From: Candidatus Omnitrophota bacterium
GTDB taxonomy: Bacteria; Omnitrophota; Gorgyraeia; Zapsychrales; Zapsychraceae
Direction of reading: 5' to 3'
Assembly (NCBI GenBank): GCA_028280285.1
Contig: JANQMA010000010.1
Location: 1 to 42,509 of the forward strand
DNA length: 42,509 nucleotides
Part shown: positions 12,443-42,509 of the stretch, one piece after another
How the letters are laid out: the number at the start of each line of letters is the position of its first letter
Position numbering within the stretch: the first letter of the stretch is position 1
Notes under the pieces: model-generated
The model's input: the letters and a program-made list of their open reading frames with translations, nothing else
What the model was told of the DNA's origin: nothing
Database searches by the model: none
Made by a program: the position numbers and the translations under genes

Positions 12443-12475
12443 TTGTGGTCTGTGTTCTGTGGTCTGTTGTCTAAA
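12442..12475. repeat. Split hairpin, left arm (GTGGTCT family)
   Basis: GTGGTCT-GTGTTCT-GTGGTCT-GTTGTCT begins 2 bp after the KS-alpha stop. Its pairing partner is not adjacent but lies at 12889-12917, beyond the four-helix-bundle gene. Confidence 0.8.
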
Positions 12476-12486
12476 ATTTTAATTTC

Positions 12487-12526
12487 TACCCCCAAAAAGA
12501 AAATAAATAATCAAAACAGGGGGAGA
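12487..12526 (+). promoter_or_regulatory. Stem that buries the ribosome-binding site of the four-helix-bundle gene
   Basis: CCCCC (12489-12493) can pair with GGGGG (12519-12523), and flanking TCT with AGA adds three pairs around one bulged A. GGGGGAG is the Shine-Dalgarno sequence of the ATG at 12529. The loop is A-rich. The same arrangement precedes the second four-helix-bundle gene at 42233-42254. Confidence 0.55.
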
Positions 12527-12528
12527 AA

Positions 12529-12879
12529 ATGAAAATTAGAAGCTTTAAAGATTTAAACACATGGAAAAAGTCACATGAATTAGTTTTAGAAATTTATGGA
12601 ATAACTAAAAATTTTCCAGATGAAGAAAAGTTTTGTTTGGCTAGTCAAATTAGACGATCGGCAATTTCAATCAGCGCGAATATTGCTGAAGGATATATGA
12701 AAAGCCGAAAGGATTTTATAAGATATCTTGATATATCAAGAGGATCGCTGGAGGAAACAAAACAGCATCTTATTTTGAGTAATGATTTAGGTTATTTACA
12801 AAATAAGCAATTTGAACAATTATTTGATTTAGCTGAAGATGTAGGGAAAATGATTTACGGTTTGCGTTCAAAATTATAG
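12529..12879 (+). CDS. Four-helix-bundle protein (23S intervening-sequence type)
   Basis: A 116-residue protein of the four-helix-bundle/S23 family (PF05635, TIGR02436). Typical signatures are FKDLNTWKKSHELVLEIY at the N terminus, FPDEEKFCLASQIRRSAISI, then SANIAEGYMKSRKDFIRYL and a C-terminal helix. Relatives are encoded in intervening sequences of 23S rRNA genes and, as Avd, in diversity-generating retroelements, where they bind nucleic acid. Base composition is more AT-rich than the PKS genes around it. The gene interrupts the KS-alpha/KS-beta pair and lies between the two arms of a heptamer hairpin, so it appears to have been inserted into, or to have arisen with, that repeat. No 23S function is implied by its place here. 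Confidence 0.9.
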   Translation: MKIRSFKDLNTWKKSHELVLEIYGITKNFPDEEKFCLASQIRRSAISISANIAEGYMKSRKDFIRYLDISRGSLEETKQHLILSNDLGYLQNKQFEQLFDLAEDVGKMIYGLRSKL

Positions 12880-12888
12880 CTTTCATAT

Positions 12889-12917
12889 ACGATCACAGAC
12901 CACGGACCACAGATCAC
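12889..12917. repeat. Split hairpin, right arm (GTGGTCT family)
   Basis: GATCACA-GACCACG-GACCACA-GATCACA is the complement of the left arm at 12442-12475. Together they flank the four-helix-bundle gene as inverted repeats about 415 bp apart. Confidence 0.8.
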
Positions 12918-12944
12918 AAAATTACACAAAAATAGAGGAATTAC

Positions 12945-19853: not shown

Positions 19854-21427
<1,574 letters not shown>

Positions 21428-21589
21428 TATTAATTTTATTTAAATTTATGGAGCGTGTAAGCGCGAACATAAATTTTAGTAAAATTATCCCGAGGAATGA
21501 AATGACGAGGGGTTACCTCAAAACATTTTTCGTGGGCTGAAATAAGGCTAGAAAATTTAAAACCTAAGAACTTGTACATTCATTAGGTG

Positions 21590-21617
21590 TTAATCAAATT
21601 ATTGATTAATTTTTTTG
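21590..21617 (+). terminator. Terminator-like hairpin in the 16S-tRNA spacer
   Basis: TTAATCA pairs with TGATTAA across AATTAT and is followed by a run of T to 21616. It is AT-rich and weak, but in an rRNA spacer it would need antitermination or could reduce 23S relative to 16S. Confidence 0.35.
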
Positions 21618-21681
21618 TCTCACAAAAGTCAATAACAAATAAGTTATTTCGAATTCTTCGAGATGGCTTGGCTTCTTATAT

Positions 21682-21742
21682 TGTGATCTGTGGTCTGTGT
21701 TCAGTGATCTGAGCACAGGTCACCGACCACCGAACACTGATA
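21682..21742. repeat. Hairpin repeat in the rRNA spacer, GTGGTCT family
   Basis: Left arm GTGATCT-GTGGTCT-GTGTTCA-GTGATCT; right arm GAGCACAG-GTCACC-GACCACC-GAACACTGAT. It ends 4 bp before tRNA-Ile, so the repeat is tolerated inside the rRNA precursor. The rest of the spacer (21428-21681) shows no gene. Confidence 0.88.
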
Positions 21743-21746
21743 TTAC

Positions 21747-21823
21747 GGGCCCGTAGCTCAGTTGGTTAGAGCACCGTGCTGATAACGCGGGGGTCAGCGG
21801 TTCGAATCCTCTCGGGCCCACCA
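21747..21823 (+). tRNA. tRNA-Ile (GAT)
   Basis: 77 nt; acceptor GGGCCCG/CGGGCCC, discriminator A, CCA encoded, anticodon GAT in GCTGATAACGC, T loop TTCGAAT. Standard 16S-23S spacer tRNA. Confidence 0.96.
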
Positions 21824-21825
21824 TT

Positions 21826-21890
21826 GTAGCGTACAGTTTCTAGCGGTTAGCGGATAGTTATTTCTAAACGCTATACGCTGAACGCTAATG
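21826..21890. repeat. Hairpin repeat between tRNA-Ile and tRNA-Ala, AGCGTTT family
   Basis: Left part GTAGCGTACAG-TTTCTAGCGG-TTAGCGG; right part CTAAACG-CTATACG-CTGAACG-CTAA. It is the same family as 5899-5975. Confidence 0.82.
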
Positions 21891-21898
21891 ACTTTAAT

Positions 21899-21974
21899 GG
21901 GGCTGTAGCTCAGTTGGGAGAGCGCCTGATTTGCATTCAGGAGGTCGCAAGTTCGATCCTTGTCAGCTCCACCA
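21899..21974 (+). tRNA. tRNA-Ala (TGC)
   Basis: 76 nt; acceptor GGGGCTG/CAGCTCC with one G-T pair, discriminator A, CCA encoded, anticodon TGC in GATTTGCATTC. Second spacer tRNA. Confidence 0.96.
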
Positions 21975-22089
21975 AGCTTAAGTAAGGCGGAGCCAATAGA
22001 CAATAAATTATAATAAATTTTATAGAGTCATCGCGACGCACTACGATTTTGTGCAATAAGGCGAAATCAATTGACCGACGATGACCTTT

Positions 22090-22146
22090 AACTCCGACAC
22101 TTTACTAAGGTCGGAGTTAATCCGACTCAGTAGACGTCGGATTAAA
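22090..22146. repeat. Hairpin repeat in the tRNA-23S spacer, GTCGGA family
   Basis: AACTCCGAC/GTCGGAGTT forms one stem and AATCCGAC/GTCGGATT a second. Same motif as the array at 6202-6288. Confidence 0.7.
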
Positions 22147-22147
22147 G

Positions 22148-22158
22148 TTCTTTGACAA
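22148..22158 (+). promoter_or_regulatory. boxA-like site before 23S
   Basis: TTCTTTGACAA, matching the copy at 19780 in front of 16S; expected for rRNA antitermination. Confidence 0.45.
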
Positions 22159-22197
22159 TTATGTAATGAAAATAACAGGTAAAGAGACATCAAGGAA

Positions 22198-22240
22198 GTG
22201 CAGCAATGCACGACCTGATAAGTACGCGCAGCAATGCGCG
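22198..22240 (+). other. Two mini-hairpins with identical AGCAAT loops
   Basis: GTGC-AGCAAT-GCAC (22198-22211) and CGCGC-AGCAAT-GCGCG (22225-22240) occur in tandem just before the 23S gene, perhaps as processing signals. Confidence 0.4.
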
Positions 22241-22360
22241 ACTACAATTTCTACTAAATAGTAATGTCAAGCTACTAAGAGTTTATGGTGGATGACTTGG
22301 TAGATTCAGGCGATGAAGGACGTGGTAAGCAGCGATATGCTTCGGGGAGTTGCAAGCAAA

Positions 22361-22393
<33 letters not shown>

Positions 22394-23405
22394 ACCCAGG
22401 GTTATACCTGGGTATCCTAAAGTGAATACATAGCTTTGGGAGGCGAACGTGGCGAATTGAAACATCTAAGTAGCCACAGGAAGAGAAACCGTAAGGGATT
22501 CCCCCAGTAGCGGCGAGCGAAAAGGGAACAGGCTAAACCAACGCGTTTACGTGTTGGGGTTGCGGGACTACAATGTGGGACTCAGAGAGGTAGTCGAAGT
22601 GTTTGGAAAATCACACCAAAGAGGGTGAAAGTCCTGTAGACGAAACTTCGAAGAGCCCTAGTAGGATCCCAAGTATGGCGGGGCACGGGAAACCCTGTCA
22701 GAATCTAGCCCGACCATGGGCTAAGCCTAAATACTCGAATCTGACCGAAAGTGAACCAGTACCGTGAGGGAACGTTGAAAAGAACCCCGGGAGGGGAGTG
22801 AAATAGAACCTAAAACCATAAACTTACAAGCGGTCGAAGCCCTATGTCCGCCACACTTCGTGGCGGGAACGGGTGACGGCGTACCTTTAGCATAATGGAC
22901 TGACGAGTTAATGTATGTTGCAAGCTTAAGGACTTCTGGTCCGCAGGCGTAGCGAAAGCGAGTGTGAATAGCGCGACAAAGTAACATGTATTAGACGCGA
23001 AGCCAAGTGATCTATCCATGGCCAGGTTGAAGCTTTGAGAAATCAAAGTGGAGGACCGAACCCACCTAGGTTGAAAACTGGGGGGATGAGCTGTGGATCG
23101 GAGTGAAAGGCTAATCAAACTTGGTAATAGCTCGTTCTCCCCGAAACAGTTCTAGGACTGGCCTCGAGTAAAGAGGATAGCAGGGGTAGAGATACTGATT
23201 GGGCTAGGGGGCACACCAGCCTACCAACCCCAACCAAACTCCGAATACTGCTATCTGTTCCTCGGGAGTTAGACCGTGCGGGCTAAGCTGCACGGTCGAA
23301 AGGGAAACAGCCCAGACCATCGGTTAAGGTCCCTAATATACACTAAGTGGTAAAGGAAGTGAGATCACATAGACAGCCAGGATGTTGGCCCAGAGGCAGC
23401 CATCA

Positions 23406-23442
<37 letters not shown>

Positions 23443-24223
23443 TTGCGCCGAAAATGATCGGGGCTCAAGTGTATAACCGAAACCATGGCTTCACTATAAT
23501 CTGCGGATTATATGAGGGGTAGGGGAGCGTAGTACTAAGCGTTGAAGGCATACCGTGAGGAGTGCTGGAGTAAGTACTAGTGACTATGTCAGTATAAGTA
23601 GCGAAAACTACGGCGAGAAACCGTAGCACCGAAAATCCAAGGTTTCCTGGGGAAGGTTAATCCGCCCAGGGTTAGTCGGGCCTAAGGCGAGGCCGAAAGG
23701 CGTAGTCGATGGACAACAGGTTAATATTCCTGTACTAGTTATATTTGTTATTCTTATCGTGACGGATGAGGATAGGTGATGCAGACTGTTGGATATGTCT
23801 GTCTAAGCGTGTAGGGTTGGTGGCGACATCAATCAGAGGCGCGATGGGGACTCGATTCTACGGATGAGGGGAAGTCACTGATTCCATGGTTCCAAGAAAA
23901 GCCGGTAAGCTAGGATATAACTACCCGTACCGTAAACCAACACAGGTAGATACCCAGAATATGGGAAGGTGCTCGAGATAACTCTTCTTAAGGAACTCGG
24001 CAAAATTGCCCCGTAACTTCGGGATAAGGGGTGCCTTCTGATTGTAGAGCTTCGCGCTCAAAGGTTGGGAGGCCACAGTAAAGACGCTCGGGCGACTGTT
24101 TAGTAAAAACACAGCACTCTGCGAAGTCGAAAGACAATGTATAGGGTGTGACACCTGCCCGGTGCTGGAAGGTTAAGTGGAGCGGTTATCCTCTTGAAGG
24201 AGAAGCTGCGAAATGAAGCCCCA

Positions 24224-24258
<35 letters not shown>

Positions 24259-24722
24259 GAATTTGTTGCCTTAGTAAAATTAGGCTATATGCCGGAACGT
24301 CCCAGTATCCGAATGTACTCGACGATGAATAGTGGTCAGCGATCAGTGTTCTGTGGTCAGTAAAAATCATATCGGTGGGGATAATCGGCAGGAAAGACTG
24401 AATTCTTAGGAGGTGAACATGTTAATAAAAATGTTGACCTGACGCGCTTCTAATCTAACAAATGGCATCTAAAATGCACGAAGCGGTGAAATACCGATTA
24501 GAAGGCAATAAAAATAAGTAGCAAATAATCGTGTTCTACTCGCGTTTTATTTTTTAATAATTCAGAATCCTCAGAGACTACACGCCTAACACTAATTATT
24601 TTTTAGTGAAGATATAGTCCGAACTGCATGGCGACATGTAGAGTTAGATAGAAATGTCTAACCGCCATATGAAAACTTATTCGCAAGTTTTCATGTTTTA
24701 ATGGTCATTAAGTAACAGAATG
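24259..24722 (+). other. Group I intron in 23S at position 1931
   Basis: The exon CCTAAGGT is cut from AGCGAAATTCCTTG by 464 nt. Group I hallmarks are seen. The exon CTAAGGU pairs with the internal guide GCCTTAG at 24268-24274 through six Watson-Crick pairs and a U-G wobble at the splice site. The intron ends in G (24722). A conserved R element (TCAGAGACTACA near 24571) and S element (AAGATATAGTCC near 24609) are present. No endonuclease reading frame exists, so the intron relies on self-splicing or is no longer mobile. The site is the known bacterial L1931 site. A single heptamer-repeat arm is embedded at 24331-24361. Confidence 0.88.
24331..24361 (+). repeat. Heptamer repeat arm inside the group I intron
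   Basis: GTGGTCA-GCGATCA-GTGTTCT-GTGGTCA is a GTGGTCT-family arm without a partner arm. It sits upstream of the recognisable R and S elements, so probably in a peripheral region. Confidence 0.7.
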
Positions 24723-25377
24723 AGCGAAATTCCTTGTGGGGTAAGTTCCCACGCGCACGAATGGTGTAACGACTTGAGCACTGTCTCAAGGAGAGACTCG
24801 GCGAAATTGTAGTGGCGGTGAAGATGCCGCCTACCCGCATCAGGACGAAAAGACCCCGGAACCTTTACTGCAACTTGATATTGAATTTGAGTCCTATTTG
24901 TGTAGGATAGGTGGGAGACTATGATGTCGTCGCGCTAGCGGCGATGGAGTCATTGGTGAAATACCACCCTGATAGTATTTAAATTCTAATTCCGTCCCGT
25001 GAATCCGGGCGTGAGACAGTGTCAGGTGGGCAGTTTGCTTGGGGCGAGTCCCTTCTAAAACATAACGAAGGGGTCCAAAGGTTCCCTTAGGTCGGTTGGC
25101 AATCGACTTTAAAGTGTAAAGGCATATGGGAGCTTAACTGTGATTCCGACAGGAAGAACAGATAGGAAACTAGGGCTTAGTGATCCGGTGGTAGATTATG
25201 GGATTGCCATCGCTCAACGGACAATAGGTACTCCGGGGATAACAGGCTGATAGCGTTTGAGAGTTCATATCGACAACGCTGTTTGGCACCTCGATGTCGG
25301 CTCATCTTATCCTGGGGCTGAACAAGGTCCCAAGGGTCCGGCTGTTCGCCGGTTAAAAAGGTACGCGAGCTGGGTTT

Positions 25378-25409
<32 letters not shown>

Positions 25410-25742
25410 ATGTGGGCGTTCGATGCTTGAAGGAGATAGTTCTCTAGTACGAGAGGACCGAGAACTACAGACCTCTGGTGTTCCAGTTGTCCTGCCAAGG
25501 GCAATGGCTGGGTAGCTACGTTTGGAAGGGATAACCGCTGAATGCATCTAAGTGGGAAGCCAACTTCAAGATTAGGCATCGTAGATCTTTGATCAATAGA
25601 CTCCTTGTAGATTACGAGGTTGATAGGTCGCATGTGTAAGACCCGTGAGGGTTTCAGCTAAGCGATACTAATAAGTCGAAAGCTTGACTTAAATATTACT
25701 ATTTAGGCTTTTTCCGTTATTTTCATTACATGATTGTCGTGT

Positions 25743-25834
25743 TCTAGTTGTTAGTAATTAGCGATTGGCGATTAGCTTTTATTTTGCTTAATTCTTCGTC
25801 TCACTAACTTCTAACAACTAACAGCTAATTTCTA
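25743..25834. repeat. Hairpin repeat in the 23S-5S spacer
   Basis: Left part TCTAGTTG-TTAGTAA-TTAGCGA-TTGGCGA-TTAGC; right part CTAACTT-CTAACAA-CTAACAG-CTAATTTCTAGA. The 7-nt period is visible. It is present in the rRNA precursor between 23S and 5S. Confidence 0.78.
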
Positions 25835-25839
25835 GAAAT

Positions 25840-25955
25840 TTCGACGGCTATACTGCGAGGACAACACCCGTTCCCATTCCGAATACGGTAGTTAAGACTC
25901 GTGAGGCCGATGGTACTTATCTCGCAAGGGATCGGGAGAGTAGGTCGTCGTCGAA
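25840..25955 (+). rRNA. rrf: 5S ribosomal RNA
   Basis: About 116 nt; the ends TTCGACGGC and GTCGTCGAA pair, and the core CCCGTTCCCATTCCGAATACGG and GATGGTACT segments are conserved. It is the last gene of the operon. Confidence 0.93.
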
Positions 25956-25962
25956 TTAATTT

Positions 25963-42220: not shown

Positions 42221-42232
42221 AAGTGCTCGATT

Positions 42233-42254
42233 TCCTCCTTAAGAAAAAGGAGGA
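42233..42254 (+). promoter_or_regulatory. Stem that buries the ribosome-binding site of the second four-helix-bundle gene
   Basis: TCCTCCTT (42233-42240) pairs perfectly with AAGGAGGA (42247-42254) across AAGAAA. AAGGAGGA is the Shine-Dalgarno sequence of the ATG at 42258. Compare 12487-12526. Confidence 0.65.
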
Positions 42255-42257
42255 ATT

Positions 42258-42509
42258 ATGAAATATAGTGGTTTTGAATTTGATTTTGAAAGATTAGAGG
42301 TTTATAAGAAATCTATTAAATTGGCTGATTTTGCTTTTACTCTTGCAAAAACCTTTCCAAAAGAATTACAATACTCCCTCGGAGACCAATTTAGAAGAGC
42401 AGCATTATCAATATGCAACAATTTGGCTGAGGGCAGCAGGAAAAGAGGAAAAAGTAAGGAACAATTTTACGGATATGCGCTCGATTCAGCTCGCGAATGT
42501 ATTCCTATT
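42258..42509 (+). CDS. Four-helix-bundle protein (partial, runs off the window)
   Basis: The first 84 residues of a second four-helix-bundle/S23-family protein: FERLEVYKKSIKLADFAF, then FPKELQYSLGDQFRRAALSI and SICNNLAEGSRKRGKSKEQF. The typical FPxE...L..Q.RRA..SI.xNIAEG core is present. It is from a different subgroup than the copy at 12529 (about one third of residues in common by eye). It lies after a hairpin arm and behind a perfect 8-bp stem over its Shine-Dalgarno sequence. Codon use is AT-rich. The C-terminal helix is outside the window. Confidence 0.88.
   Translation, partial: MKYSGFEFDFERLEVYKKSIKLADFAFTLAKTFPKELQYSLGDQFRRAALSICNNLAEGSRKRGKSKEQFYGYALDSARECIPI

What the first reader, a model, noticed from the sequence alone, without database searches (positions are those of the whole stretch)
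12487..12529. Both four-helix-bundle genes have the Shine-Dalgarno sequence locked in a stem
CCCCC/GGGGG (with TCT/AGA) before the first gene and TCCTCCTT/AAGGAGGA at 42233-42254 before the second each hide the ribosome-binding site. Sequences differ but the design is the same, which suggests translational control, possibly autoregulation by the RNA-binding protein itself. The repeat arms around the genes are a second possible RNA ligand.
Basis: partly seen in the sequence, partly recalled or inferred. Interest (0 to 1): 0.7.

Follow-up and report, generated by a model that had tools for sequence, protein, structure and literature searches.

The report
Hidden ribosome site before mobile genes
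In this uncultured Omnitrophota bacterium, small genes of a selfish-looking family, and unrelated transposase-like and phage-like genes, share a leader RNA that folds over its own ribosome-binding site; the probable effect is to keep these genes almost silent when they are transcribed along with their neighbours.

Summary
Both genes are 23S_rRNA_IVP (PF05635) four-helix-bundle genes. Gene 1 pairs UUUCU[A]CCCCC with GGGGGAGAAA; gene 2 pairs UUCCUCCUU with AAGGAGGAA. In gene 1's protein-defined subclade, 12 of 16 members have a sequestered Shine-Dalgarno (SD), against 16 of 75 ordinary strong-SD genes. Arm swapping shows true covariation beyond the shared C-run (z -5.5; controls -1.5). The stem is absent from most other members of the family. 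The translational-control reading is supported; IVP-specific autoregulation is not. The same C5/G5 SD hairpin precedes unrelated mobile-type genes in the same genomes: Y1_Tnp/IS200-like (median SD-opening energy 9.9 kcal/mol against 2.2 for ordinary genes) and ORF6N (7.5). The IVP genes sit in same-direction gene runs between inverted arms, in a junction that is empty in many relatives. The best reading is a cis-acting translational damper on genes that ride host transcripts, as described for transposase leaders. New here: its extension to IVP and ORF6N genes, the recurrent C5 strand, and a helix around the C-run in about half of the IVP leaders, which would make an H-type pseudoknot with the SD (not significant in gene 1). 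Function is inferred; nothing was tested in cells.

The parts
12483..12493 (+). 5' arm of the SD-sequestering stem of gene 1 (TTTCT, bulged A, CCCCC)
   Evidence: homologous C-runs in relatives
12519..12528 (+). 3' arm of the stem = Shine-Dalgarno of gene 1 (GGGGGAGAAA)
12529..12879 (+). Gene 1: 23S_rRNA_IVP four-helix-bundle protein, 116 aa
   Evidence: PF05635, E 8e-39; clade A of the protein tree
12443..12467 (+). left arm of the inverted repeat around gene 1, starts directly after the stop codon of the upstream fabF-like gene
   Evidence: 88% complementary to 12895-12919; family-wide test
12895..12919 (+). right arm of the inverted repeat around gene 1
42232..42240 (+). 5' arm of the SD stem of gene 2 (TTCCTCCTT)
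42247..42255 (+). 3' arm = Shine-Dalgarno of gene 2 (AAGGAGGAA)
42258..42509 (+). Gene 2: 23S_rRNA_IVP protein, N-terminal 84 aa, truncated by the contig end
42194..42220 (+). short repeats (GTTTAAA units) before gene 2, probable left arm; its partner lies beyond the contig end
   Evidence: inference by analogy with gene 1

Best explanation
The stem is a cis-acting translational damper. The IVP gene and its two flanking inverted arms form an inserted unit that sits between host genes and is transcribed by read-through from them. In that transcript a C-rich strand pairs with the SD, in some relatives probably as an H-type pseudoknot, so ribosomes rarely start and little IVP protein is made. The same device is used by other mobile-type genes of these bacteria (Y1/IS200-like transposases, ORF6N proteins). 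Shown by computation: the pairing, its covariation, its conservation in a subclade, the sharing with unrelated mobile-type families, the gene orientation and the empty sites. Inferred: that the pairing lowers translation in the cell, that read-through is the only transcription, and that low expression is what is selected.
For: SD sequestered in 12 of 16 members of a protein-defined clade against 16 of 75 controls, Fisher p 8e-5. Own arms pair better than swapped arms, z -5.5, permutation p 2e-4; controls z -1.5. SD-opening energy: Y1_Tnp genes with a strong SD median 9.9 (12 of 13 at or above 4.5), ORF6N 7.5 (11 of 18), ordinary genes 2.2 (16 of 75); p 2.6e-7 and 4e-4. Against controls with noncoding upstream regions p 5e-5 (clade A), 5e-5 (Y1_Tnp), 3e-3 (ORF6N). 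Strict hairpin pattern hits fall disproportionately just before these families (one search compared). IVP genes follow a same-direction gene in 92 of 99 cases, 18 of 18 for those with the hairpin. No sense-strand promoter-like site upstream of either ATG. Junction without the gene in relatives. Precedent: weakening the RBS-burying 5'-UTR structure of the ISPpu9 transposase raised reporter activity 26-fold (PMC8450116).
Against: Only about a fifth of the IVP genes sampled have the hairpin; the others mostly have a weak SD, which may be another way of being poorly translated but is not shown to be. Some other genes carry the same leader: a lamin-tail PEP-CTERM protein in this genome and a helicase-like gene. 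The co-direction excess over other genes is modest (93% against 83%). No expression data exist. The promoter scan covers only sigma-70-like sites. Dinucleotide shuffles, which keep the C-run, give only a mild excess.
Confidence: 0.62

Rival explanations
1. Autoregulation: the IVP protein binds the leader hairpin (or the repeat arms) and represses, or releases, its own translation, like ribosomal-protein operons.
For: The C5 strand recurs even where the SD is AGGAGG, leaving a C.A mismatch or bulged A, so C5 may be kept for reasons other than pairing. Proteins of the related bAvd family are thought to bind nucleic acid (own knowledge; gene 1 scores 39.6 bits against bAvd, just under its cut-off of 40).
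Against: The same leader precedes unrelated proteins. Within IVP, sequences outside C5/G5 differ freely. Many paralogues lack it.
Confidence: 0.12
2. A regulated switch: the C-run sits in the loop of an upstream hairpin (S1), and S1 and the SD helix form a pseudoknot or two exclusive states that answer to a small RNA, ligand or protein.
For: A helix closely enclosing the C-run is individually significant in 11 of 23 IVP SD-hairpin leaders (combined p 9e-9) and 2 of 7 ORF6N leaders, against 1 of 17 controls.
Against: Missing in half of the leaders, in the Y1_Tnp leaders (0 of 8) and not significant in gene 1 (p 0.33). The control set is not clean (combined p 0.013). No Rfam family matches. S1 was noticed first and tested afterwards on partly the same sequences.
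Confidence: 0.12
3. A DNA-level hairpin, for example an end or REP-like site recognised by Y1-type transposases, that happens to overlap the SD.
For: The same hairpin type stands before Y1_Tnp genes, and Y1 transposases recognise hairpins (own knowledge).
Against: The 3' arm coincides with the SD at SD spacing from the start codon throughout; the real ends of the unit are the repeat arms. The balance of G.U over A.C interruptions (6 against 3) is too small to decide.
Confidence: 0.08
4. RNA thermometer or a transcription attenuator overlapping the start site.
For: Y1_Tnp and ORF6N leaders often end in GGGGGATTTTTT before ATG, which resembles a terminator.
Against: The IVP leaders lack the T-run and no terminator is called at gene 1; nothing points to temperature.
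Confidence: 0.04
5. Chance pairing or base composition.
For: Any G-rich SD can pair with a nearby C-run; dinucleotide shuffles that keep the run give a mild excess only.
Against: The C-run itself is what recurs; covariation of the flanks and enrichment in particular gene families.
Confidence: 0.02

Closest known systems
Transposase mRNA leaders that bury the ribosome-binding site (ISPpu9, PMC8450116; IS200 and IS10 from reference titles cited there and from own knowledge)
   Same: SD paired inside the 5' UTR of a gene carried by a selfish element; expected to keep expression very low.
   Different: Here most genes are IVP or ORF6N, not transposases; the pairing strand is a C5 run; the hairpin is short and adjacent to the start codon; no antisense RNA was looked for.
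23S rRNA intervening sequences (IVS) with S23p/IVP ORF (Coxiella, PMC4990558; Leptospira)
   Same: Same protein family, ORF enclosed by inverted repeats, transcription by read-through of the host transcript, poor translation.
   Different: Here the unit lies between protein-coding genes, not in rRNA; the SD is strong but hidden, whereas in Coxiella the SD is weak and removed when the IVS is excised.
H-type pseudoknots over an SD (for example preQ1-I riboswitch, gene 32 and S15 leaders; own knowledge)
   Same: A loop sequence pairs with the SD in part of the leaders here.
   Different: No Rfam match, no known ligand, present in about half of the IVP leaders only.

Membership tests
23S_rRNA_IVP (PF05635) | profile match above the curated cut-off | tested here: met
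   gene 1 132.6 bits, gene 2 70.3 bits, cut-off 33.8
23S rRNA intervening sequence (IVS) | located inside the 23S rRNA gene | tested here: not met
   both genes lie directly after fab-type genes (gene 1 between two fabF-like genes), not in the rRNA operon at 19854-25956
23S rRNA intervening sequence (IVS) | ORF enclosed by complementary terminal repeats | tested here: met
   arms 12443-12467 / 12895-12919; 46 of 98 IVP loci against 3 of 97 controls
23S rRNA intervening sequence (IVS) | excision by RNase III | not testable with these tools
   needs RNA
transposase leaders with a buried ribosome-binding site | SD paired within the 5' leader | tested here: met
transposase leaders with a buried ribosome-binding site | the gene encodes a transposase | tested here: not met
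   IVP has no transposase domain; Y1_Tnp genes with the same leader do
transposase leaders with a buried ribosome-binding site | weakening the structure raises translation | not testable with these tools
   needs reporter fusions
autoregulated mRNA leader (ribosomal-protein type) | leader specific to the gene whose product binds it | tested here: not met
   same leader before Y1_Tnp and ORF6N genes
autoregulated mRNA leader (ribosomal-protein type) | product binds the leader | not testable with these tools
   needs binding assay
known riboswitch or RNA family | match to an Rfam model | tested here: not met
   no relevant match in 12 loci at E up to 1, nor at gathering level in the window

The most novel reading that the evidence does not exclude
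Omnitrophota use one undescribed leader RNA, a C5 strand presented in a hairpin loop that forms a pseudoknot with the SD, before several unrelated mobile-type gene families. A common cellular factor that recognises C5 could then silence or release all of these genes together.
Probability: 0.17. Interest if true: 0.78.

Novelty: new variant of a known kind. Interest (0 to 1): 0.52.

Why it matters
IVP genes are abundant in uncultured bacteria, their function is unknown, and outside rRNA they are annotated only as 'four helix bundle protein'. A leader shared with transposase-like and phage-like genes places the intergenic IVP copies among selfish or mobile genes and suggests how their expression is held down. 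It gives a recognisable signature (C5, linker, G-rich SD, ATG) by which further mobile genes can be found in this phylum, and it makes autoregulation, read-through insulation and a common regulator separable by simple reporter tests.

Tried and rejected
A first accessibility measure (mean unpaired probability over seven bases) was too blunt and had only 30 controls; replaced by SD-opening energy. Over all strong-SD IVP genes the excess is small; it becomes clear only by subclade, and strong-SD IVP genes outside it do not exceed noncoding-upstream controls. A count of outward pairs around a C4/G4 anchor is biased because the anchor was chosen to maximise pairing; I rely on the arm-swap test. 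Fold-back relief by an internal promoter (as in IS10) is unlikely as a general rule because several loops are only about 10 nt (inference). The terminator reading fails for the IVP leaders. G.U against A.C asymmetry was inconclusive. Rfam gave no known family. Papers on Omnitrophota IVP elements: none found in the open library. The IS200 paper was not held.

Full report
What is there. Gene 1 (12529-12879) and gene 2 (42258 to the contig end) are PF05635 23S_rRNA_IVP genes. Before gene 1, TTTCT-A-CCCCC pairs with GGGGGAGAAA directly upstream of ATG; before gene 2, TTCCTCCTT pairs with AAGGAGGAA. Both fold better than nearly all dinucleotide shuffles (z -2.7 and -3.6). The window is one contig of a 2.2 Mb genome with six IVP genes. 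Its relatives, by the titles of matching named records, are Candidatus Omnitrophota.

Own genome. Of the six IVP genes, four hide the SD in a stem: gene 1, gene 2, L001 (TATCCCCC/GGGGGATA) and L004 (GCATCT, bulge, CCTTAG-GTTG-CTAAGG, G, AGATGC). L003 and L005 have no good SD and no such stem.

Relatives. 38 of 55 genomes of the order-level set have PF05635 genes. I placed 109 genes with a chosen start and computed the free energy needed to open the SD in -60..+10. In a protein tree of 97 rows, hairpin-bearing genes cluster (9 changes against 17.6 in shuffled labels), mostly in one clade that includes gene 1 and L001 (98/90 support). Using that clade plus two members found later in other searches (L117, L118), 12 of 16 non-redundant members need at least 4.5 kcal/mol to open the SD, against 16 of 75 ordinary genes with a strong SD (Fisher p 8e-5). 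The threshold was set after seeing the data; at 8 kcal/mol the counts are 8 of 16 and 2 of 75, and one of those two is gene 1 itself. Gene 2 falls with L086 and L080 (65% and 64% identity), both of which hide the SD in hairpins of other sequence, L086 only weakly.

Covariation. For clade A I paired each gene's upstream region with each other gene's SD region. Own pairs are stronger (mean -12.5 against -9.8 kcal/mol; z -5.5, permutation p 2e-4). Strong-SD IVP genes outside the clade give z -3.9; ordinary genes -1.5, p 0.08. Examples: CTATCCCC/GGGGATAG (L012), ACATCCCC/GGGGATGT (L014), TTCCCCC/GGGGGAA (L045), AAAGGTCTTCCC/GGGAGGACTTT (L009).

Not only IVP. A pattern search for C5, linker, purine-rich SD, ATG gave many more hits than the reversed pattern (own genome 9 against 0, which is six places). 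In the own genome the genes behind it are two IVP, one Y1_Tnp, one ORF6N and a broken copy that shares its start, and one lamin-tail PEP-CTERM protein. I then took family sets without regard to the leader, except that three genes found by the pattern were added to each: Y1_Tnp genes with a strong SD have median SD-opening energy 9.9 (12 of 13 at or above 4.5), ORF6N 7.5 (11 of 18), ordinary genes 2.2. Against ordinary genes with noncoding upstream sequence the differences hold (p 5e-5, 5e-5 and 3e-3 for clade A, Y1_Tnp, ORF6N). In the strict pattern search, by hand comparison, roughly a third of the distinct hits in the first 55 genomes stand directly before one of the three families, which make up well under one percent of genes. 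Further hits precede a RhuM/Fic gene and another Y1-like gene. Y1_Tnp and ORF6N leaders often continue as GGGGGATTTTTTATG.

The unit. Inverted arms of short degenerate repeats enclose IVP genes (46 of 98 against 3 of 97 ordinary genes and 3 of 98 when arms of different loci are combined). The gene 1 junction between two fabF-like genes is conserved in the family; in several relatives it is only 10-20 nt long, and two relatives carry an arms-only inverted repeat there. IVP genes follow a same-direction neighbour in 92 of 99 cases (controls 225 of 271; p 0.018), 18 of 18 for those with the hairpin. No sense promoter-like site lies between the upstream gene and either ATG. This fits transcription by read-through.

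Pseudoknot. In many IVP leaders the C-run is itself closely enclosed by a helix, for example CAGGAAGT[tgatCCCCC]GCTTCCTG (L019), AACACTT[tCCCCCt]AAGTGTT (L182), ATACGA[gCCCCC]TCGTAT (L217). It is individually significant in 11 of 23 IVP leaders (combined p 9e-9; L012 and L031 are near-copies), 2 of 7 ORF6N, 0 of 8 Y1_Tnp and 1 of 17 control leaders. Together with C5/SD pairing this is an H-type pseudoknot or a pair of exclusive hairpins. Gene 1 has at best a weak version (TTTCT/AGAAA; p 0.33). I noticed the pattern before testing it, so the p-value is optimistic.

Reading. The simplest account is a translational damper on genes that ride host transcripts, the solution reported for transposase mRNAs such as ISPpu9 (PMC8450116). 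The IVP ORF of the Coxiella IVS is likewise poorly translated, by a different route (PMC4990558). Autoregulation by IVP is disfavoured because unrelated proteins share the leader. All statements on translation in cells are inference.

Noticed in passing
L371 (G003) and L374 (G019), junction of two fabF-like genes: At the place where the window has arm-IVP-arm, two relatives carry an arms-only inverted repeat of short degenerate units without any gene (MITE-like), and several relatives have a 10-20 nt empty junction.
   Followed up: partly
L258-L287 (Y1_Tnp) and L288-L317 (ORF6N): ATCCCCC..GGGGGATTTTTTATG leaders: the SD hairpin is followed by a T-run and so also resembles an intrinsic terminator.
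   Followed up: partly
L182, L212, L213, L217, L363: The C5 strand is kept where the SD is AGGAGG, leaving a C.A mismatch or bulged A inside the stem.
   Followed up: no
window 22265-25691: The 23S rRNA is about 500 nt longer than the Rfam model (3427 against 2925 positions), so it carries insertions.
   Followed up: no
G000:C10:3590 (L250): An ORF6N-type start with a leader nearly identical to the intact copy at G000:C48:15883 runs into a deletion and stop codons: a broken copy.
   Followed up: partly
L349: A RhuM-Fic protein gene in a relative stands directly behind the C5/G5 SD hairpin.
   Followed up: no
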